64,000 nucleotides of DNA from Vicinamibacteria bacterium. GTDB taxonomy: Bacteria > Acidobacteriota > Vicinamibacteria > Fen-336. The stretch covers positions 62,001-126,000 of the forward strand of contig DATMML010000042.1 in assembly GCA_035570235.1 (NCBI GenBank), in the 5' to 3' direction. Shown in pieces: positions 3 through 54,201 of this stretch. The position numbers were made by a program, and so were the translations under genes. Below the pieces are notes generated by a model that was given only the letters and a program-made list of their open reading frames with translations, was not told the DNA's origin and ran no database searches. Every line of letters starts with the position of its first letter. The stretch's first letter is position 1.

Positions 3-1661
3 ATCCCCGACCGGGGGTTCGTCTTGCGGCACTTGGAGAGCCTCGGGGTCGTGCTGAAGCCGGCCGAGGCCATGAATCCGCGCCTGCTCGAGATCGGGGC
101 CGAGACCGGGGGCCTGCCCGAGCGGCTCGACGGGCAGCGCTCGCTGAAAGAGGCGGCGTCCCTCACCCGGCTGGATGAGTTCGAGGCGGCCAAGGTGGCC
201 TGCGGCTTGCTTTTCCTGGGCCTGGTGACGCGGGCGGAGGACGCGGTTGAAGGGGGGGCGCCGCGAGCGGGGGCGGGTGGGGAGGGAGAGTTGGACCTGG
301 CCCAGACCGCCCGCGCCGCCTTCGGAGACGACTCCCAGGGCGAGACTCCGGCCGCTCCCCACCACGCGGAAACGGATGCGCCGTTCTTCGTGTCCGAGCC
401 GACCTCGTCTTCCCCCGAGCCGGCTCTCCCTCTCCCCGGTGCCGAGCCCCCCGCCTTCGCAGCGTCCGGGCCCGCGGGCTTCCCGATGCCCGAGCCCGAC
501 CCGAGCCAGTTCGCCATGGTGGAGCCCGGGTCGCCGGCGTTCGCCGATTCGGAGGCCCCGGTCTTTGCCGAGCCGGCAGCATTCGCGCCCCCCGCCCAGC
601 CGGCGAGCCCCCTGACGCTGGGCGTGGAGCCTGAGCCCACACCCGCCGTCACTTTCGGCAGCATGGATTCCACGCCCTCCAGCCCGGGGCTGGCGGAATC
701 AGCCCCCGGCTTCGAGATCGCGACCACTTCCGGCTTTGCCTCGAGCGCACCTTCGCTTGCTCCCCGCGCGGCACCCGACACGTTCGAAGACGTCACGCCC
801 CCGCCGGCCGTGACCTACCCCGATCCGGGGCCCATCGAGGACCACACTTCCGAGCCCGTCCCCACCTCGCGCCCCTCCAGGGATGACCTGGCCGCCCTCG
901 ATGCCCTTTTGAACCCATCCGGCTCGGGGTCCGCCCTCGGTTCCGGGGAGAAGCCGAAACCTCAGGAGCGCTGGGAGCCCCAGTTCCGTCCGACGTCGGC
1001 AGGTCGGCCGAACCGCAAGCGGAGCTCGCCGGCGCTGGCCTGGGTCCTCGGGGGGCTGGGAGTGACGGCGGCGATTGCCGGAGCTGGGTTCTACTTCTTT
1101 GGATCGCAGATCCTGAGGGTTGTCGCCCGGGCCCGGCCGGCCCGTACCCCGGCGCCGGTGGCCGCCCCCACGGCCTCCCCGTCCGTGCCTCCGGAACGCC
1201 CGGTGACCCCTGCCCCTGCGCCCACCGCCAGCGCATCAGCGGCCGCTCCCGCCACCACCGCGCCTCCCCCTTCCCCGCCGGCCACGCCTGCTCCCGCCCC
1301 CACCGCCAGCCCTCGCCCGTCCACCGCGACCGCAGACGCGCACAGCCTGCTCCAGAGCGGCTCCTATCTGGAGGCGGCTCAGGCATTCGCCTCCGGCCTG
1401 AAGAAATCCGGGCCGCGGTTCAGCATCCAGATCCTCGTGGCCTGCTCCACCGAAACCATCCAGAAAGCCAACCAGTCCGTGCCGGGAGACGAGCTCTACA
1501 TCCTGCCCGTCACCTTCAAGGGGCGGAGCTGTTATCGCATCTGCTGGGGCACGTATCCGACGGAGGAGGCCGCCGCTGCGGGTCTGCGCGCGCTGCCCGA
1601 ATACTTCCGGAGGGGAGGAGCCACTCCCAAGGTCGTGCCCACGGCCGGGATGCTCAACTAA
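3..1661 (+). CDS. DUF4388-like / SPOR-like membrane protein, 5' truncated
   Basis: The frame is open from the first complete codon at 3, so the gene almost certainly begins before the window; the TTG at 24 is only the first start-like codon inside it. The first ~80 residues resemble the helical end of a DUF4388 (PATAN-type) domain, with a stretch reading LDGQRSLKEAASLTRLDEFE. A very Pro/Ala-rich linker of about 250 residues follows, then one transmembrane helix (about residues 335-360 counted from codon 24), another Pro/Ala/Thr-rich stretch, and a C-terminal ~85-residue segment shaped like a SPOR peptidoglycan-binding domain (FSIQILVACSTETIQ, then CYRICWGTYPTEEAA). Family knowledge: DUF4388 proteins are common in gliding and soil bacteria, and SPOR domains bind denuded septal glycan. 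Cytoplasmic N-terminus and periplasmic C-terminus are inferred. The next gene starts 2 bases after the stop. Confidence 0.7.
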   Translation: MPDRGFVLRHLESLGVVLKPAEAMNPRLLEIGAETGGLPERLDGQRSLKEAASLTRLDEFEAAKVACGLLFLGLVTRAEDAVEGGAPRAGAGGEGELDLAQTARAAFGDDSQGETPAAPHHAETDAPFFVSEPTSSSPEPALPLPGAEPPAFAASGPAGFPMPEPDPSQFAMVEPGSPAFADSEAPVFAEPAAFAPPAQPASPLTLGVEPEPTPAVTFGSMDSTPSSPGLAESAPGFEIATTSGFASSAPSLAPRAAPDTFEDVTPPPAVTYPDPGPIEDHTSEPVPTSRPSRDDLAALDALLNPSGSGSALGSGEKPKPQERWEPQFRPTSAGRPNRKRSSPALAWVLGGLGVTAAIAGAGFYFFGSQILRVVARARPARTPAPVAAPTASPSVPPERPVTPAPAPTASASAAAPATTAPPPSPPATPAPAPTASPRPSTATADAHSLLQSGSYLEAAQAFASGLKKSGPRFSIQILVACSTETIQKANQSVPGDELYILPVTFKGRSCYRICWGTYPTEEAAAAGLRALPEYFRRGGATPKVVPTAGMLN

Positions 1662-1663
1662 CC

Positions 1664-2962
1664 TTGCCCCAGTTTTCCCCCCTCCCTCCCTCCCGCGCCC
1701 TCCGCGCGGGCCTGCTCGGCCTGCTGCTGGCCGCCCCGGTGGGGGCCGACGTCATCACCCTGACCAACGGGCACGTCATCGAAGCGGATCGGGCATGGTA
1801 CGAGGGCTCGCAGCTACGCTACGAGAAGAACGGCGGGGTTTTCGGACTTCCCCGCGACCTCGTCCAGAAGGTCGAGGCCGGCCCGCGAGGGGAGCCGATC
1901 ACCGACTCCGAGGTTCTCCGGAGCCGGGAGAAGCTGGCCGCCCAGGATCCGGGGGAGGCGCTGCGCTTTGCCCGCCTCGCCCTGTTCCATAACCCCCAGT
2001 CCATTCCGGCCATGCAGGCCCTGATCGAGGCGCAGCTCGCCTTGGGTGAGCTCCCCGCTGCCCGCGAAACGGCCGAGCGCGCAGTGCGCATGGACGAGCG
2101 GAATCCTCGGTCACGATCGCTTCTGGGCGATGTCTTGGTCGCGCTCGGAGACCGGGCACGGGCCGAAGAGGAATATCGCCACAGTCTGGTGCTGCGCCCC
2201 GATCCCCTGGTTCGTCGGAAACTCGCGGAGATCGCGGCCCCCGCGCAGACCGCAGCCCCCGAAGCGCAGTTCCGGATCCGCTACGACGGGGGGGTCAACG
2301 AGCCCCTGGGCGTGGCCGTTCTCAAGGCCCTGACCGAGAGCTATTCCGACTACACGAAGCGCCTCGGCTTCAGCCCCGACCTCCCCGTCACTGTCGTGCT
2401 CGAGACCAACGCGGGCTTCCGGGATACCACCCGAGCCCCGGAATGGGCAGAGGGGTGGAACGACGGGACGATCCGGGTGCCGGTCATGGGCCTGGACCAG
2501 CCCACACCCCGTCTCCTCCGCGTGCTCCGCCATGAGTTGGCCCACTCGTTCGTGGCCGCCCGTACCGGCAACAACTGCCCGGTCTGGCTGCAGGAGGGGA
2601 TCGCCCAATGGCTGGAGGGCGGCGATCCCGCGCGGGACGACGCCACCCTGGCTCTCCTGGCCCGGGCTGGGCGCTTGCCCAATCTCTTGACCCTCGAAGG
2701 GCCGTTCCGCGGCCTGGCGGAGGCGGAGGCCGCGATCGCCTATGCGGAGAGCCTGTCCGCGGTGGCCCATATCCTGCGCACGCGTGGCGAGGCCGGGGTC
2801 GTTCGCCTGGTGGCCGCCCTCTCCGACCGCCTGCCCTCGGAAGAAGCACTGCCGGTGGCGCTGGCCCTCAGTTACGCCGAGTTCCAGAAGAGCTGGGAAG
2901 ACTTCCTGCGCGGGACTGACAAAAACGGCCCCGTGGGCACGCCCGCGAGCCCACCGCGTTAG
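1664..2962 (+). CDS. TPR-containing peptidase MA-like metalloprotease, secreted
   Basis: 432 residues starting at TTG, 2 bases after the previous stop, so probably cotranscribed. Residues ~11-28 form a signal peptide ending near PVGAD. Residues ~30-75 are a small beta domain common before TPRs in this type of protein, residues ~100-190 hold about three TPR helices, and residues ~205-400 match the peptidase MA (gluzincin) fold. The zinc motif HELAH is at 290-294 and a downstream glutamate at 311 lies in WLQEGIAQWLEGG, the usual second ligand motif. A periplasmic or outer-surface protease is inferred; the substrate is unknown. It converges tail to tail with the epimerase gene, with one base between the stops. 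Confidence 0.75.
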   Translation: MPQFSPLPPSRALRAGLLGLLLAAPVGADVITLTNGHVIEADRAWYEGSQLRYEKNGGVFGLPRDLVQKVEAGPRGEPITDSEVLRSREKLAAQDPGEALRFARLALFHNPQSIPAMQALIEAQLALGELPAARETAERAVRMDERNPRSRSLLGDVLVALGDRARAEEEYRHSLVLRPDPLVRRKLAEIAAPAQTAAPEAQFRIRYDGGVNEPLGVAVLKALTESYSDYTKRLGFSPDLPVTVVLETNAGFRDTTRAPEWAEGWNDGTIRVPVMGLDQPTPRLLRVLRHELAHSFVAARTGNNCPVWLQEGIAQWLEGGDPARDDATLALLARAGRLPNLLTLEGPFRGLAEAEAAIAYAESLSAVAHILRTRGEAGVVRLVAALSDRLPSEEALPVALALSYAEFQKSWEDFLRGTDKNGPVGTPASPPR

Positions 2963-3935: not shown

Positions 3936-3967
3936 CGCCGTCGGGTCGGGCGGGAGGGAAAAGTGTC

Positions 3968-4358
3968 CGCAGAGCGGGTCTGTAAGCCGGATCCTGTCAC
4001 CGCCGCCAAGCGAAGCCGGCAGCGGGAGGCGATCATTCCTCTAGCCCCGCGGTCACCCGTGGGGTCCAGCGACCTACCCGGGGGCTTCGGCCGGGCCAGC
4101 CTCAAGCGCCCCCCTATTTGGTCTTGCTCCGTGTGGGGTTTTCCCTGCCCGTCGTGTCACCACGCCGGCGGTGCGCTCTTACCGCACCTTTTCACCCTTG
4201 CCACCCCCGGTCGCCCGGGAGTTCGGCGGTGTGTTTTCTGTGGCACTTTCCCTGAGGTCACCCTCGCTGGCCGTTAGCCAGCACACTGCCCTTGGAGTCC
4301 GGACTTTCCTCCCCGGCCTGGACATCCGGCCGCGGCGACCGCCCGACCCGCTCTACGG
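3968..4358 (-). ncRNA. rnpB: RNase P RNA, bacterial class A
   Basis: On the minus strand the 5' part contains the conserved GAGGAAAGTCCGGACTCC block, the middle contains AGGGTGAAAAGGTGCGGTAAGAGCGCACC-like helices of the specificity domain, and the 3' part contains the conserved GACAGGATCCGGCTTACAGACC block. The ends pair: AGAGCGGGTC near the 5' end is complementary to GACCCGCTCT near the 3' end, forming helix P1 and giving ends at about 4358 and 3968 (about 390 nt). It is the catalytic RNA that removes tRNA 5' leaders. Exact ends are uncertain by a few bases. Confidence 0.95.
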
Positions 4359-42044: not shown

Positions 42045-42695
42045 CTACTCGGGCCTTATCAGGCCCACCCTCACCGCGAACCGCACGAGGCCGGCAAGGT
42101 CGTGCACGCCCAAACGCTCCATGAGTTGGGCGCGGTGTGCCTCCACTGTCCGGTAGCTGACCCCGAGACGCTCGGCGATCTCCTTGCTTGAGTGTCCCTC
42201 CGCGGCTAACTGTAGGATCTCCCGCTGCCGCGGCGTGAGCGCATCGAGGGGATCCGTGGCCCCGCCCGTTCGGCTCACGTAGTCGTCGACCACGCGCTTG
42301 GAGACCGCCGGACTCAGATAGCTCTCGCCCCGAGCCACGGCCCGCACGGCAACCTCGAGCTCCGCCACCGCCGAGGCCTTGAGGAGATACCCGGCACATC
42401 CCGCACGCAGTGCCCTCAGCACGTACTCCTCGGAGGTGTGCATGGAGAGGATGATCACGCGGATGGAGGCGTCCAGAGTCGCCAAACGCCCCGCGACTTC
42501 GAGCCCGTTCAATCCCGGCATGCCCACATCCATGAGAACGACATCCGGCCGGAGCGCCTCGGCCAGCCGCAGGGCTTCCTGACCGTCGCCCGCCTCGCCC
42601 ACAACCTCGACGCCCGGGAGTCCTTGGAGAAGACCCTGGATCCCGGCGCGAACGAGCGTGTGGTCATCGGCCAAGAGGACTCGGATGGGCGTCAT
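42045..42695 (-). CDS. NarL/FixJ-family response regulator
   Basis: 216 residues. Receiver domain with acidic pair at 10-11 and acceptor Asp56 (VVLMDVGMPGL); C-terminal LuxR-type HTH (LTPRQREILQLAAEGHSSKE, then LGVSYRTVEAHRAQLMERL). The ATG overlaps the stop of the upstream HisKA_3 kinase by 4 bases, so these form a cognate pair. It binds DNA as a dimer when phosphorylated; targets unknown. Confidence 0.95.
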   Translation of the reverse strand: MTPIRVLLADDHTLVRAGIQGLLQGLPGVEVVGEAGDGQEALRLAEALRPDVVLMDVGMPGLNGLEVAGRLATLDASIRVIILSMHTSEEYVLRALRAGCAGYLLKASAVAELEVAVRAVARGESYLSPAVSKRVVDDYVSRTGGATDPLDALTPRQREILQLAAEGHSSKEIAERLGVSYRTVEAHRAQLMERLGVHDLAGLVRFAVRVGLIRPE

Positions 42696-45600
42696 GGCAT
42701 CCGTGGGGCCCTCCCGCCCAAGGGGAGCCGGGCCCGCACCTCCGCGCCGGCTCCCGGGCGAGTCAAGAGTTCGTACTCTCCGCCCGCCAGCGAAATGCGC
42801 TCCTGCATCCCCAGGAGGCCGACCGAAGCCCCTCCGATCGCGCGCTTCCGGGCGATCCCGGCGTCAAAGCCAATCCCGTCATCGCGAACCCTCAAGTCCA
42901 GCGCCTCCGCCACGGAGTGTAGATCCACCCAAACATTCCGGGCCTGCGCGTGGCGGGCCACGTTGGTCAGCGCCTCCTGGGCCACTCGGAAGCACGCAGT
43001 CTCCAGCTCCGAGGGCAGGTGGGGAACCGCATCGATCGACAGGTGCACCTCGATGCGCGTGGTCCTTGCGAACCGATCCGCGTACCATCGGACGGCCGCC
43101 GGCAACCCGAGGTCGTCGAGCACCGACGGCCTCAGGTCCAGCGCCAGATCCCGCACCGTCTCCATCGCCCGATCGACGGAGGCGATGGCGTCCCGTAGAT
43201 GGACGGGCGCCAGGGCCGCGGCGGAGCGCTGGAGGGACGCCAGATTGATCTTCACCGCCGTGAGCACCTGCCCGAGCTCGTCGTGCAGCTCGACGGCCAG
43301 CCGCCGCCGCTCCTCCTCCTGGGCGCTGAGGAGCCGTCGGGACAGCGCCTTCAGCTGCTCACGGCCGGCGCGCACCGCTTCGTCGAGGCGGCCCCGCTCG
43401 ATGGCAGGGGCGACGCGGTCTGCGACCACCTGCAAGAGATGGAGGTCGCCTTCCGTAAAGGGCGCTACCGTGGACGTTACGCCCACGAGGCCGATGGGCT
43501 TCCCTTCCACGAGAAGGGGCGTGCTCATCGCGGCCCGGAGAGGCAGCCTCGGATCCGACCACATCTCTCCGTACCAACCGTCCCTCCCGGAAGCGGCCGG
43601 TTCTACGTCATTGGTCAAGAAAGGCGCGTCTAGGTGGACGGCGTCGAGCGGAATGCGCACTCCGGCCACCCGCTCGAAGGGTACGCCGTCGATCGCCCTT
43701 GCGTAGAGCGCCTTCCCTTCGTCGTCGATGAGCCGCACCGAAGCGACGTCCGCCCGCAGGGTGCCGCGCAGCCGGGCGAGGAGCTCGCGCAGCAGATCGT
43801 CCAGCCCGAGATAGGACAAGGCAGCGTCCGTGATTCTTTGGATGGCATGAAGCCGCTCCAGCGCCGCCTCCGCTTCAGCCCTGGCCTTGCTCTCGCTCTC
43901 CAGGAGGCCCGCGCGCTCTTCCTCGGCCTGCCGCCTATCCGTCACGTCCTCCGCGATCCCGGCGTAGCGATAGATCTGACCCGAGGCGTCTCGGATCGGG
44001 AAGCCCTGGTCACGAATCCACCGGATGGACCCGTCGCCACGCACCAGACGGTAGGTCTCGTCCAACTTGCCTCGCGCACCCTTCTCCTCGGCTGCGCGCC
44101 AAACCCGCTCCCGATCCTCCGGATGAACGGCCTCGAGCCACGACCTCGGATCACGATAGAGGCTCTCGCGGCTGCGGTTGAAGACCCGCTCGTAGGCGGG
44201 GCTTACGTAAAGCAGCTCAGTGTTGTCGCGGTTGGCGAGCCAGAACACCTCATTAATGCTTTCCGCCAGCTGCCGAAACCTTCCGTCGCTCTCGCGCAGC
44301 GCCGCCTCTGCCCGTTTGCGCTCGGTGATGTCCAGCCCCAGACTGATTCGCGAGCCGTCCGAGAGATCGAAGCATGCCCACGAGCTCTCGATAACCCGTT
44401 TGTCACGGGTGCGCATGCGGAAGTCCGCCCAGCGATTCTGCACCTGCCGGTAGAACTCAAGAACCGCTTCACGGCTCTCTGCATCCGGGTAACACTCGGT
44501 CAGGAGATCGACCTGCTGTGCCTCTTCCAGGGTCCAGCCGAGCGTTCGCTCCCACTCTCGGTTCACGCGCCAGAGCCGCTCGGATGTGTCGGTGATCGAG
44601 ATCATCACCGGGATGTTGTCGAAGATGGCTCGCAGGGTCTCCTTCTCCCGCCGCTGCGCCGCCTCCGCCTCTTTGCGCTCGGTAATGTCCAACCCGAATC
44701 CTATTCGCGAGCCGTCGGAGAGGGCGAAGCGCGCCCACGAGGCATCGATGACCCTCCCGGACTGAGTCCTCATCTGAAAGTCGGCCCAACGACGCTCCGC
44801 CCGCCGGATGAACTCCTCTGCTATTTTCCGATCCTGGGGGTTGGGGTACGCCTCGGCCAGGATGTCCAGCCGTTGTGCTTCGGAGAGCGTCCAGCCGAGA
44901 GTCCGCTCCCACTCCCGGTTCACGCGCGAGAGACGACCGGACGCGTCGAAGCACGAGATCATCACGGGTATGTTGTCGAAGATGGCTTCGAGGGTCTCCC
45001 TCTCCCGGCGCTGCGCCACCTCCACCTCGTGCCGTTCCACCGCCAGCGACAACACGTTCGCCACCGATTGCAGGAAGTCAACATCGTCGGGGCTGAACGA
45101 CCGGGAGCGCGTGGAGTGGACGGCGAGGCCTCCCCACGGAGCAGAACGACCCCGAACGACGACGCCGATCACGCTCACGACCCGGTGTTCCAAGGCAACT
45201 TGAGAGACGGCCAACCGTGACTCCGCTCCGATGTCGGGAACCACCAGGGGCGCGTCCGAGCCCAGCATGTGAGCGCTCATCAGGGCGTCGTTGGCGGCCA
45301 AGGTCATGCCGACGAGCTCTCCCCACCCCACGCCTGCGCGCAGGCGGGAGCCCTCTCCCCCTGGGAGCCACTCTCCTATGAGGGCGTGATCGGTGCCCAA
45401 CGTTGCCGCGGTGATGACCGTGGCCTCGTTCAGCAGAGCGACCAGGTCCCGGGACCGGATCGCGATCTGGCCCAAGGCGGCGACCGCCGATTGCTGGCGG
45501 TTGCGCGTGCGCAGCTCTGCGTTGGCTGCTCCGAGCTCGGCCGTGCGCTCGACGACACGCCGCTGGAGCTCATCGTTTAGTTGCTTGATCTCCGCCTTGG

Positions 45601-46216
45601 CCTGGCGGAGCTCGGGAGTCTCGACAACCTCCCAGAGTCCATTCCGCTTGGCCAGGGCGAAGTTGTGCGTTCGCGCCACATCTAGGATATCGCCGGCGCC
45701 AGTCGTGGCCAGGGGGTAGGAGCAGGACACGACCATCCTCTTGTCGCCGACCCACTCCTCGAACTTTTCTTCGTACTCGCACAAGTCGCGCCAACCCTCT
45801 CTCTCCAACCAAGACGGGCTGCCGTTTACTCTCATGCCGAGGAAGCCCCTATCCAGGGCTTGCCTGAGCTTCTTGTCCCAGGCGCCCATCAGCCCCTTGA
45901 GATCAAGGGCGCCTGCGCTCAGATACCACTCCCGGCCTTGATGGATCTCGATGCTTCCGTCTGCTTCATAGCGTTCCAGGTCCGGGATAGCCCGTCTCAA
46001 CGCACTGATCGCCTCGCCCGGCGTCGTGGGCTCGGGGACGACCCAGAGGCAGAACTCCCTCTGTTCGAGACCGGCCTTGAAGTAAGGAAGCAGGGTATCG
46101 AGGAGGTCGTCCTCCGTCTCGAAGAAGTGGCAGAAGTGCGTACCCCAGGGGACATCACCCACGAAGTCGATACCGGTCTTCCTCAAGGGCACCGTCGTCA
46201 TCCTCTGATTATCCAC
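42692..46216 (-). CDS. Multi-sensor NarX-type histidine kinase (MEDS-GAF-PAS-PAS-PAS-GAF-HisKA_3)
   Basis: 1174 residues from GTG 46216 (ATG at 46201 possible). Residues ~12-195 match the MEDS sensory domain (GDVPWGTHFCHFFETEDDLL, then AREWYLS-like strand and RMVVSCSYPL). A coiled coil and a GAF domain (~240-400) follow, then three PAS domains. The first two (~410-525 and ~530-645) are near duplicates: both contain IFDNIPVMIS and NREWERTLGWTL. A second GAF (~800-960) precedes HisKA_3 with the acceptor His in RRRLAVELHDELGQVLTAVK and an HATPase ending ASVGLLGMQERISLAGG. No membrane helix; a cytoplasmic sensor. Partner of the NarL-type regulator. Confidence 0.92.
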   Translation of the reverse strand: MDNQRMTTVPLRKTGIDFVGDVPWGTHFCHFFETEDDLLDTLLPYFKAGLEQREFCLWVVPEPTTPGEAISALRRAIPDLERYEADGSIEIHQGREWYLSAGALDLKGLMGAWDKKLRQALDRGFLGMRVNGSPSWLEREGWRDLCEYEEKFEEWVGDKRMVVSCSYPLATTGAGDILDVARTHNFALAKRNGLWEVVETPELRQAKAEIKQLNDELQRRVVERTAELGAANAELRTRNRQQSAVAALGQIAIRSRDLVALLNEATVITAATLGTDHALIGEWLPGGEGSRLRAGVGWGELVGMTLAANDALMSAHMLGSDAPLVVPDIGAESRLAVSQVALEHRVVSVIGVVVRGRSAPWGGLAVHSTRSRSFSPDDVDFLQSVANVLSLAVERHEVEVAQRRERETLEAIFDNIPVMISCFDASGRLSRVNREWERTLGWTLSEAQRLDILAEAYPNPQDRKIAEEFIRRAERRWADFQMRTQSGRVIDASWARFALSDGSRIGFGLDITERKEAEAAQRREKETLRAIFDNIPVMISITDTSERLWRVNREWERTLGWTLEEAQQVDLLTECYPDAESREAVLEFYRQVQNRWADFRMRTRDKRVIESSWACFDLSDGSRISLGLDITERKRAEAALRESDGRFRQLAESINEVFWLANRDNTELLYVSPAYERVFNRSRESLYRDPRSWLEAVHPEDRERVWRAAEEKGARGKLDETYRLVRGDGSIRWIRDQGFPIRDASGQIYRYAGIAEDVTDRRQAEEERAGLLESESKARAEAEAALERLHAIQRITDAALSYLGLDDLLRELLARLRGTLRADVASVRLIDDEGKALYARAIDGVPFERVAGVRIPLDAVHLDAPFLTNDVEPAASGRDGWYGEMWSDPRLPLRAAMSTPLLVEGKPIGLVGVTSTVAPFTEGDLHLLQVVADRVAPAIERGRLDEAVRAGREQLKALSRRLLSAQEEERRRLAVELHDELGQVLTAVKINLASLQRSAAALAPVHLRDAIASVDRAMETVRDLALDLRPSVLDDLGLPAAVRWYADRFARTTRIEVHLSIDAVPHLPSELETACFRVAQEALTNVARHAQARNVWVDLHSVAEALDLRVRDDGIGFDAGIARKRAIGGASVGLLGMQERISLAGGEYELLTRPGAGAEVRARLPLGGRAPRMP

Positions 46217-51934: not shown

Positions 51935-53098
51935 TCAGGATGGGTTCCCGCGCGGGGGCCGGCGCTCCGCGACCACCGTCACCTGCATGTCCTTGGCGAG
52001 ATGTACGACCCTCATGGCGGTGTGCCTCTTGTTCAGGAGGGGGATGAAACGCTTGGACGGCTTGGCAAGGAAGATCTGCGTGACCCCATTTCGGCGTGCG
52101 AAGTCCACCAGGACCTCCGCCTCGTCCCTCCCCTCCAGCACTCGGGCCTCGATGTGCAGCTTCCGCGCGAACTCCAGATGCCGCTCGAGCGCCTCGCGGG
52201 CCTCCTTCGCCAGCTCCTCGAGGCGGCCGGAGACCAACACCGACACGGCAAAGCAGTCGGCCTTTAGGTAGTCGGCGACGCGTCGGCCACGCCGGATCAG
52301 GCCCACGGTGGCGAGCGACTCCGTCAGGTGAATGAGAATCCGCTCCCGGGCCTCGGCCGTTGCCGTCGAGGGCAAGATGCTGGGCCTCGGGTCGGGCGGC
52401 GGAGCATCCAGGTCGACGGCGTCTCGTTGCCGCACATCGATTTCGTGCGCGGTCTGCCGAAGGGCCATCTCGCGTAACGCGGCCAGCGTGGACTCCTTGA
52501 AGAAGTTCTCCATCGCGCGCTCGGCCTTGTCCGGGCCATAGACCGCCCCCCGCTCCAGTCGATTGAGAAGGGCCCGCGGGGGCAGGTCGATCAAGATGAT
52601 CTGGTCCGCTTCCTTGACTACCCAGTCGGGAATGGTCTCCCGAACCTGGATGCCGGTGATCTCACGCATCTGATCGTTGAGGCTTTCCAGATGCTGAACG
52701 TTCATGGTCGTGAGCACCTCGATGCCGGCCTCGAGGAGCATCATCACGTCTTCCCAGCGTTTGGTTCGAGCCGAGCCCGGCACATTGGTGTGCGGGAATT
52801 CGTCGACGGCGCAGATCTCGGGGTGCCGCGCGAGAATGGCGTCCGTGTCCATCTCCTCGCACTCGTGCCCGCGGTACTCCATGCACCGCCGGGGGATGAC
52901 TTCCAGTCCCGCCAATTTCGCGATGGTGTCCTGGCGACCGTGCGGCTCAAAGTAGCCGACCACCACATCATGTCCCTGCGCCTTCAGCTGTTGAGCTTCC
53001 TCCAGCATCCTGAACGTCTTCCCCACTCCCGCGGCATACCCCAGGAAGACCTTGAGCCGGCCCTTCCTGATCGCCGCCAGCCCTTCCGCTTGGCTCAT
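51935..53098 (-). CDS. Free-standing KdpD N-terminal domain plus Usp domain protein
   Basis: 387 residues. The KdpD-type ATPase domain occupies ~12-215: Walker A GYAAGVGKTF at 20-29, the histidine-rich DEFPHTNVPGS motif and the LNDQMREITGIQVRET stretch. Residues ~250-380 are a Usp (universal stress) fold as in KdpD. There is no transmembrane region, GAF or kinase part, so it is not a truncated KdpD ending by accident: the stop follows the Usp domain directly. No kdpFABC is nearby. It overlaps the related upstream gene by 4 bases. Possibly a K+- or c-di-AMP-responsive accessory protein; this is inference. Confidence 0.8.
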   Translation of the reverse strand: MSQAEGLAAIRKGRLKVFLGYAAGVGKTFRMLEEAQQLKAQGHDVVVGYFEPHGRQDTIAKLAGLEVIPRRCMEYRGHECEEMDTDAILARHPEICAVDEFPHTNVPGSARTKRWEDVMMLLEAGIEVLTTMNVQHLESLNDQMREITGIQVRETIPDWVVKEADQIILIDLPPRALLNRLERGAVYGPDKAERAMENFFKESTLAALREMALRQTAHEIDVRQRDAVDLDAPPPDPRPSILPSTATAEARERILIHLTESLATVGLIRRGRRVADYLKADCFAVSVLVSGRLEELAKEAREALERHLEFARKLHIEARVLEGRDEAEVLVDFARRNGVTQIFLAKPSKRFIPLLNKRHTAMRVVHLAKDMQVTVVAERRPPRGNPS

Positions 53099-54201
53099 GA
53101 GTGGGGGAATATCCGGACGTCGATCCCGTCCGCTCCCAAGATCAGTCGCTCGACGGGGTTCGGTCGCAGGCGGCTCATCCAGCCGGCCTCCTGGCTATGG
53201 CCGACGAAGATCTGGGTGATGCCGTGCCTGGCTGCAAATTCCAGAATGGCCCGGATCGGATCCGCGGCCCGTAGGATCTCGACGTGGGCCTTGGCCTCGC
53301 GGGCACAAGCCAGATTCTGCTCCAGCACTTGGTCATCCGTGGGGCTGGATTGCTGCTGCTGGACGTAGATCACGTGGAGATCGCCATGGAACCGGTCCGC
53401 CTGCCGGCGTCCACGATGGATCATCACACTCGCGTTCGACCGCGGCGTGATGCAGACGAGAATGCGCTCGTGGGGCCCATAGGCTTGCTCGATTCCCTGG
53501 CGACGGAGGTAGTCCTCCAGCTGTTGATCGACGACCTCCGCGGCGAGGACAAGGGCGATCTCTCTCAACTGGGACAGCTGCCGCTCCGCTCGAGAAGGGT
53601 CCACAGCCGGGTCCCCCCCCTGTAGATAGCGGGTGACGCAATACTCCGGAGGGGCGTCCACCACCTCGATTTCGTCGGCCGTCCTCAGGAACGATTCCGG
53701 AACGGAGTCGGTCGCAGACTTCCCCCGAATGGCCTCTACCGCCGCCTGCCTCTCTTTGACGTACTGCAGGTTGATGGAGGTGATGACGGAGATGCCGGCC
53801 GACAGGAGCTCTTCGACGTCCTGCCACCGCTCAGAGTGCTTGCTGCCGGGGGGGTTCCGGTAGGCCAGGCCATCGATGAGGCAGACCTGGGGATGCCGGC
53901 GAAGCACGGCCGGGAGGTCGATGGCGGAGCTTCCCAGATCGGTACGGGGGGCAATGACTTCGAAGCCTTGCAGGAGATCTCTCACATCCGCCGGAGCCGA
54001 GGGCTGGGTGGCCGCGACCACGACGTCCTGGCCTCGCTTCTTGCGCCGCCGGCCCTCATCCAGCATCCGGAACGACTTTCCGACCCCCGAGGCGTATCCC
54101 AAGAAGACCTTCAGCTTCCCCCGCAGCCGGTGACGCTCTTCCGCCTCTACGCGCTTGAGAAATTGCTCCGGGCTGGGGCGGACATAGTCCCTGTCGGGCA
54201 T
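53095..54201 (-). CDS. Second KdpD N-terminal/Usp protein, motif-diverged paralogue
   Basis: 368 residues from ATG 54201 (frame open further but unsupported). Walker A is GYASGVGKSF at ~35-44. The conserved DELAHTN-type motif has become DGLAYRNPPGSKHSERW, so the acidic and histidine residues are replaced. A Usp fold fills ~235-365 (ILVCITPRSNASVMIHRGRR). It is upstream of, and overlaps, its paralogue; they are clearly homologous but well diverged. A structural or regulatory partner role, with reduced ATPase function, is inferred. Confidence 0.78.
   Translation of the reverse strand: MPDRDYVRPSPEQFLKRVEAEERHRLRGKLKVFLGYASGVGKSFRMLDEGRRRKKRGQDVVVAATQPSAPADVRDLLQGFEVIAPRTDLGSSAIDLPAVLRRHPQVCLIDGLAYRNPPGSKHSERWQDVEELLSAGISVITSINLQYVKERQAAVEAIRGKSATDSVPESFLRTADEIEVVDAPPEYCVTRYLQGGDPAVDPSRAERQLSQLREIALVLAAEVVDQQLEDYLRRQGIEQAYGPHERILVCITPRSNASVMIHRGRRQADRFHGDLHVIYVQQQQSSPTDDQVLEQNLACAREAKAHVEILRAADPIRAILEFAARHGITQIFVGHSQEAGWMSRLRPNPVERLILGADGIDVRIFPHS

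What the first reader, a model, noticed from the sequence alone, without database searches (positions are those of the whole stretch)
51935..54201. Overlapping pair of kinase-less KdpD sensory proteins
Two genes encode only the KdpD ATP-binding N-domain plus Usp domain. They lack the membrane and kinase parts and no kdpABC or kdpE lies nearby. The upstream copy has lost the acidic/His motif (DELAHTN-like becomes DGLAYRN), while the downstream copy keeps it, suggesting an active-inactive pair that works as a hetero-oligomer.
Basis: partly seen in the sequence, partly recalled or inferred. Interest (0 to 1): 0.55.

Follow-up and report, generated by a model that had tools for sequence, protein, structure and literature searches.

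The report
Paired active and inactive KdpD subunits
Two overlapping bacterial genes make a matched pair of short KdpD proteins, one with an intact serine-kinase active site for switching off a potassium pump and one whose active site has been disabled but kept, which suggests a two-part kinase with a built-in regulatory subunit.

Summary
Window 53095-54201 (A) and 51935-53098 (B), minus strand, overlap by 4 bases and each encode only a KdpD N-domain plus a Usp domain. 'Kinase-less' is misleading: this N-domain is an atypical serine kinase (ASK) that inhibits the K+ pump KdpFABC by phosphorylating KdpB (PMC11018627). B keeps every ASK residue checked. A keeps the P-loop Lys and Mg-site Asp, but has E61Q in 88 of 88 rows and lacks the catalytic E110 in 81 of 87. 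A and B are separate clades. In 396 genomes of the phylum the same 8 carry A and B, always adjacent. In 58 of 87 loci A follows kdpABC in the kdp operon; here the pair is unlinked, and the genome also has kdpABC with a full-length kdpD. A is under purifying selection like B. Best reading: B is the catalytic ASK, A a nucleotide-binding pseudo-ASK partner. Physical A-B contact and A's role are inferred. c-di-AMP is not a universal signal: 19 of 49 other pair genomes lack a detected cyclase. Single short KdpD is known; the conserved ASK/pseudo-ASK pair is a new variant that I did not find described.

The parts
53095..54201 (-). Gene A: KdpD N-domain plus Usp, degenerate active site (pseudo-ASK), 368 aa
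   Evidence: PF02702 4.5e-53 and PF00582 3.4e-6; E61Q and E110G signature; model pLDDT 89.7 with 2r8r Z 26.9 and 7ji4 Z 16.9
51935..53098 (-). Gene B: KdpD N-domain plus Usp, intact ASK residues, 387 aa
   Evidence: PF02702 9.1e-92; residues; model pLDDT 89.5 with 2r8r Z 31.0 and 7ji4 Z 18.9
53095..53098 (-). 4-base ATGA overlap of A stop and B start
   Evidence: read from sequence
54070..54099 (-). P-loop (Walker A-like) of A, GYASGVGKSF; coordinates worked out by hand from residue numbers
   Evidence: K37-equivalent in 85 of 85 A rows with a residue there
53854..53877 (-). Walker B-like region of A, IDGLAYRN; coordinates worked out by hand from residue numbers
   Evidence: D109 in 86 of 86 rows with a residue, E110 replaced in most
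52784..52807 (-). Walker B-like region of B, VDEFPHTN; coordinates worked out by hand from residue numbers
   Evidence: D109, E110 and H113 in 83 of 83 B rows with a residue there

Best explanation
The genes encode a two-subunit form of the short KdpD atypical serine kinase (ASK) that controls the KdpFABC potassium pump after translation. B is the catalytic subunit and would phosphorylate the TGES serine of KdpB. A is a pseudo-ASK: it keeps the nucleotide-binding P-loop and the Mg-site Asp but has lost the catalytic glutamate and a second acidic residue, and it acts as a regulatory partner of B, gating B's activity through its nucleotide site and Usp domain. Shown: domains, motif states, co-occurrence, kdp-operon location in most relatives, purifying selection, intact KdpB TGES serine. 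Inferred: nucleotide binding by A, A-B contact, direction of regulation, and that KdpB (encoded on another contig here) is the target in this genome.
For: B keeps K37, T38, D109, E110, H113, R190 and an aromatic at 39 in every row with a residue there. These, except H113 (my addition), are the residues named for the E. coli kinase in PMC11018627 (passages). A has E61Q in 88 of 88, T38S in 84 of 86 and E110 in only 6 of 87, yet keeps G36, K37, D109 and N115. The same 8 of 396 genomes carry A and B, adjacent. Where A stands without B next to it, 5 of 6 genomes searched have a B-clade gene elsewhere. A follows kdp genes on the same strand in 58 of 87 loci; KdpA is in 47 of 50 pair genomes. KdpB keeps TGES in 50 of 50 that span it. 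dN/dS 0.06-0.14 for A and 0.04-0.11 for B in four pairs of genomes.
Against: No direct evidence of A-B binding; no complex could be predicted. In this genome the pair is not in the kdp operon and a full-length KdpD with its own intact ASK motifs sits beside kdpABC, so the pair could be redundant or have another target. 6 of 87 A rows keep E110. R190 is kept in about half of A (45 of 87), including the window copy, so loss of the adenine contact is not uniform. One of six A-only genomes has no B anywhere in its assembly (G420). 24 of 87 loci show no kdp genes upstream on the same strand.
Confidence: 0.6

Rival explanations
1. Division of labour: B is the ASK for KdpB, while A is the N-terminal input domain, in trans, of the separate histidine kinase encoded in the same operons, tuning its kinase or phosphatase balance by ATP and Usp ligands.
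For: A separate DUF4118-HisKA-HATPase kinase (the KdpD C-half) and/or an OmpR-type regulator lies upstream on the same strand in 26 of 31 kdp-linked loci with enough sequence. A reference title seen says that the E. [quoted passage not shown]
Against: Other species have the same split kinase with one short KdpD (PMC11018627). In G000 kdpABC is beside a full-length KdpD that has its own N-domain; a separate KdpD-type kinase was not looked for there.
Confidence: 0.2
2. A is an antagonist or decoy: it binds KdpB without phosphorylating it and shields the TGES serine, so the A:B ratio sets pump inhibition.
For: A loses catalytic but not P-loop residues.
Against: A also loses the R65, T68 and D168 positions conserved in B and the other KdpD rows, and S149 becomes E, so a preserved substrate-docking face is not obvious; the contact residues were not mapped.
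Confidence: 0.12
3. The window pair has been repurposed after transfer and acts on a target other than KdpB.
For: Unlinked to kdp here. Flanking HflC is 79-80% identical to family members G213 and G333, which do not carry the pair. Window A and B group with loci labelled Terriglobia, Acidobacteria or Bryobacterales, not with classmates G221 and G253.
Against: Own KdpB keeps TGES; the close relatives of the pair in G396 and G397 are also on a contig other than kdpA's, yet A and B are the only KdpD domains found there.
Confidence: 0.12
4. A is a decaying paralogue without function.
For: Loss of catalytic residues.
Against: dN/dS 0.06-0.14, 44 invariant columns in 46 A sequences, exact co-occurrence with B in the phylum sample.
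Confidence: 0.02

Closest known systems
Short KdpD/Usp atypical serine kinase, e.g. Deinococcus geothermalis KdpD (PMC11018627; outline, abstract, passages and section 8 read)
   Same: B: KdpD N-domain plus Usp, no membrane or histidine-kinase part, all ASK residues, usually near the end of a kdp operon in relatives
   Different: Here two diverged subunits instead of one, the first with a disabled active site; pair unlinked from kdp in this genome; B is a clade distinct from the single short KdpDs sampled
Split KdpD of Acidobacteriota and Chloroflexota: ASK chain plus separate TM/GAF/HK chain (PMC11018627)
   Same: In kdp-linked relatives the histidine kinase and regulator are separate genes upstream of kdpABC
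   Different: The ASK chain is doubled into a pseudo-ASK/ASK pair; the passages I read do not mention two ASK chains
KdpD-N of Deinococcus radiodurans (PMC5716572, passages; locus L175)
   Same: kdpBAC followed by a short KdpD
   Different: Single gene, E110 and H113 kept, falls outside both A and B clades
NCBIfam NF038185 KdpD-like non-kinase potassium sensor
   Same: Best NCBIfam hit of both A and B, almost full length
   Different: Both score far below its curated cut-off (333.5 and 221.7 against 550 bits)

Membership tests
KdpD N-terminal ASK domain | PF02702 match above gathering score | tested here: met
   A 180.2 and B 306.7 bits, cut-off 26.1
KdpD N-terminal ASK domain | Walker A-like GKT/S | tested here: met
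   B GKT; A GKS, with K in 85 of 85 rows that have a residue
KdpD N-terminal ASK domain (gene B) | Walker B D109 and E110, both needed for phosphorylation in E. coli | tested here: met
   83 of 83 B rows with a residue; window B DE
KdpD N-terminal ASK domain (gene A) | Walker B D109 and E110, both needed for phosphorylation in E. coli | tested here: not met
   D109 kept, E110 is G in window A; E in 6 of 87 rows
KdpD N-terminal ASK domain | Adenine pair W39/R190 | tested here: inconclusive
   B: aromatic at 39 in 84 of 84 and R190 in 83 of 83; A: R190 in 45 of 87, window A has R
Short KdpD/Usp protein | Usp domain follows, no TM or HK domains | tested here: met
   A by Pfam; A and B by fold to 7ji4, Z 16.9 and 18.9
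Short KdpD/Usp protein | Serine kinase activity on KdpB | not testable with these tools
   needs purified proteins; KdpB TGES serine present in own genome and in 50 of 50 relatives that span it
c-di-AMP-binding KdpD Usp (Firmicutes type) | (A/G/C)XSXSX2N(Y/F) motif | tested here: not met
   0 of 87 A, 0 of 84 B; also 0 of 27 single short KdpDs including the D. radiodurans row, so it does not exclude other binding modes
KdpD sensor histidine kinase | DUF4118, HisKA and HATPase_c domains | tested here: not met
   absent from A and B
NF038185 KdpD-like non-kinase sensor | score at least 550 bits | tested here: not met
   333.5 (B), 221.7 (A)

The most novel reading that the evidence does not exclude
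An obligate ASK/pseudo-ASK heteromer: the KdpB serine kinase has evolved a dedicated pseudoenzyme subunit (fixed E61Q, usually E110G, intact P-loop), and the two-gene cassette is a portable module that moves between Acidobacteriota lineages and works with or without c-di-AMP, so the pseudo-subunit supplies a different K+, energy or nucleotide signal.
Probability: 0.45. Interest if true: 0.65.

Novelty: new variant of a known kind. Interest (0 to 1): 0.5.

Why it matters
The KdpD serine kinase was reported in 2024, and how short versions without K+-sensing domains are controlled was answered there for one protein (c-di-AMP, Deinococcus geothermalis). A conserved pseudo-kinase partner, kept also in genomes without a detected c-di-AMP cyclase, points to a second control route and makes it testable with two small soluble proteins and the known KdpB assay.

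Tried and rejected
Recent split of kdpD or pseudogene origin: rejected, because A and B are two separate clades and a full-length kdpD frame sits with kdpABC on another contig.

Misassembly or misbinning as the cause of the orphan location: disfavoured, because flanking HflC is 80% and 79% identical to same-family genomes G213 and G333, and the radical-SAM neighbour is 66% identical in G213 (no match in G333).

c-di-AMP as the general signal: not supported as universal. A DAC domain is in 30 of 49 pair genomes plus G000; incomplete assemblies could explain some absences, but KdpA was missed in only 3 of 50. c-di-AMP riboswitches lie near 2 of 31 pair loci searched (L010, L142) and none was found in the own genome.

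A first regular expression for the KdpB TGES site was too narrow and matched 4 of 59; the corrected pattern matched 50, the other 9 being fragments under 600 aa.

Selection bias: the loci were found with peptide patterns from A that include the P-loop end and the stretch ending at D109, so T38S, F39 and D109 in those rows are biased; E61 and E110 are outside the patterns. The 7 loci from the phylum sample were not pattern-selected: going to adds 5 G, 1 P and 1 gap at E110, none E.

AU test of A plus B as one clade: not run, the quick tree already has it at SH-aLRT 85, not starred. Fold comparison found known folds only. Literature searches for a described pair; none of the listings named one; subscription journals are mostly not held.

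Full report
OBSERVATION. The window carries two minus-strand ORFs, A (53095-54201, 368 aa, upstream) and B (51935-53098, 387 aa, downstream), overlapping by ATGA. Both match the KdpD N-domain (B 9.1e-92, A 4.5e-53); Pfam sees a Usp domain in A (3.4e-6) and no membrane or histidine-kinase domain in either. AlphaFold models (pLDDT 89.7 and 89.5) match the KdpD N-domain 2r8r (Z 26.9 and 31.0) and the KdpD Usp domain 7ji4 (Z 16.9 and 18.9). By sequence the only PDB relative found is 2r8r.

GENOME CONTEXT. The window lies on a 200-kb contig of a 5.7-Mb, 138-contig genome of unnamed origin. The pair sits between two Band_7 genes (HflK/HflC by order and family, my naming) and a divergent Ser/Thr kinase gene. 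The genome has three KdpD domains: A, B and one in a 915-aa ORF on contig 22, next to ORFs that I name kdpC, kdpB and kdpA (kdpA confirmed by PF03814). It has one c-di-AMP cyclase domain.

WHAT THE DOMAIN DOES. Silberberg et al. 2024 (PMC11018627; outline, abstract, passages and section 8 read) show that the KdpD N-domain is an atypical serine kinase that phosphorylates KdpB S162. Walker A (G36/K37/T38), W39/R190 and Walker B D109/E110 are needed, and a short KdpD/Usp protein of D. geothermalis is stimulated by c-di-AMP. So 'kinase-less' is right for the histidine kinase only.

MOTIFS. In E. coli numbering, B keeps K37 and T38 in 84 of 84, an aromatic at 39 in 84 of 84, and D109, E110, H113 and R190 in 83 of 83 with a residue. 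A keeps K37 in 85 of 85, D109 in 86 of 86 and N115 in 87 of 87, but E110 is G in 74 and E in 6 of 87 (window included), E61 is Q in 88 of 88, T38 is S in 84 of 86, H113 is kept in 5 of 88 and position 149 is E at a printed frequency of 1.0. The 27 single short and 27 full-length KdpDs all keep E110, H113 and R190. The six A rows that keep E110 still have E61Q. So A is a systematically altered form, not random decay. Pairwise dN/dS for A (0.06-0.14) is like that for B (0.04-0.11) in four pairs of genomes, with dS near saturation in two of them.

CO-OCCURRENCE. Of 80 loci found with A, 72 have B next to it on the same strand: 36 overlapping, 33 within 40 bp, 3 further (ORF starts as listed, not curated). 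Eight do not; one of these contigs ends 380 bp on. Six of the eight lie in genomes that I searched whole: five have a B-type gene on another contig, and one (G420) has none. In 396 genomes of the window's phylum, 8 have A-type and 8 have B-type genes, the same 8, adjacent; 159 have some KdpD domain at E<=0.001. Between A-type and other KdpD matches there is a gap from about 1e-101 to 1e-63.

PHYLOGENY. In a quick tree of 94 rows A (28) and B (30) are each one side of a branch with SH-aLRT 100, apart from single short (27) and full-length (9) KdpDs. A and B together are one side of a weaker branch (85), compatible with an old duplication. Window A and window B both group with L007, L011, L009, L015 and L019 (99), labelled Terriglobia, Acidobacteria or Bryobacterales, and not with the classmates G221 and G253. 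Family members G213 and G333 have hflKC-like genes 78-84% identical but not the pair, and no pair gene lies next to hflC there. I infer that the cassette moved into this lineage as a unit; loss in relatives is the alternative.

LINK TO KDP. In 58 of 87 loci A lies on the same strand within 4.5 kb downstream of kdp genes, in 24 it does not, and 5 are too short to tell (in L032 and L033 of the 24 kdp genes lie nearby on the other strand). By a separate count 31 of 52 A genes lie within 12 kb of kdpA. The usual order is histidine kinase (DUF4118-HisKA-HATPase), regulator, kdpA, kdpB, kdpC, sometimes a BBP2 porin, A, B; kinase or regulator is upstream in 26 of 31 loci with kdpA and enough sequence. 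KdpA is present in 47 of 50 pair genomes, G000 included. In 45 of 50 the KdpD-domain count is 2; G000 has 3, three others 3 or 4, and G420 has 1. KdpB keeps TGES in 50 of 50 that span the site.

SIGNAL. A cyclase (DAC) domain was found in 30 of 49 pair genomes and in G000. All six searched genomes with A away from B lack it, but they look related to each other. The Firmicutes c-di-AMP motif from PMC8214093 (passages) is absent from all A, B, single and full rows, the D. radiodurans row included, so it decides little for non-Firmicutes. c-di-AMP riboswitches lie near 2 of 31 pair loci searched.

CONCLUSION. The feature is real and conserved. The best reading is a two-subunit short KdpD: B the serine kinase for KdpB, A a pseudo-ASK that keeps its nucleotide site and regulates B. 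The catalytic assignment of B rests on residue conservation and published work on relatives; the role of A, the A-B contact and the target in this genome are inferences. The main rival is that A serves the separate histidine kinase. It is a new variant of a known kind; I found no description of the pair.

Noticed in passing
L010:34-171 (+) and 206-2392 (+): A c-di-AMP riboswitch precedes a 728-aa transporter-like ORF (KimA/APC-like by eye) immediately upstream of the HK-RR-kdpABC-A-B cluster.
   Followed up: partly
L142:13568-13716 (-): Second c-di-AMP riboswitch near a pair locus.
   Followed up: no
L009:8328-9650 and similar ORFs in L016, L038, L071: A BBP2-type porin gene lies between kdpC and A in many kdp-linked loci; an ORF that looks alike by eye lies next to kdpA in the own genome (L004:11655-13415).
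   Followed up: partly
L010:4733-5203 (+): A protein of about 160 aa without a Pfam match lies between the regulator gene and kdpA in many loci (cluster 6, 18 loci).
   Followed up: no
pair genomes: 19 of 49 pair genomes show no DAC domain, so many of these bacteria may lack c-di-AMP altogether.
   Followed up: partly
window 3967-4354 (-): Bacterial RNase P class A RNA.
   Followed up: no
window 42692-46216 (-): Large sensor kinase with MEDS, GAF and PAS domains.
   Followed up: no
L172 (G254 contig 88): Two closely related single short KdpD genes on one contig, about 9 kb apart.
   Followed up: no
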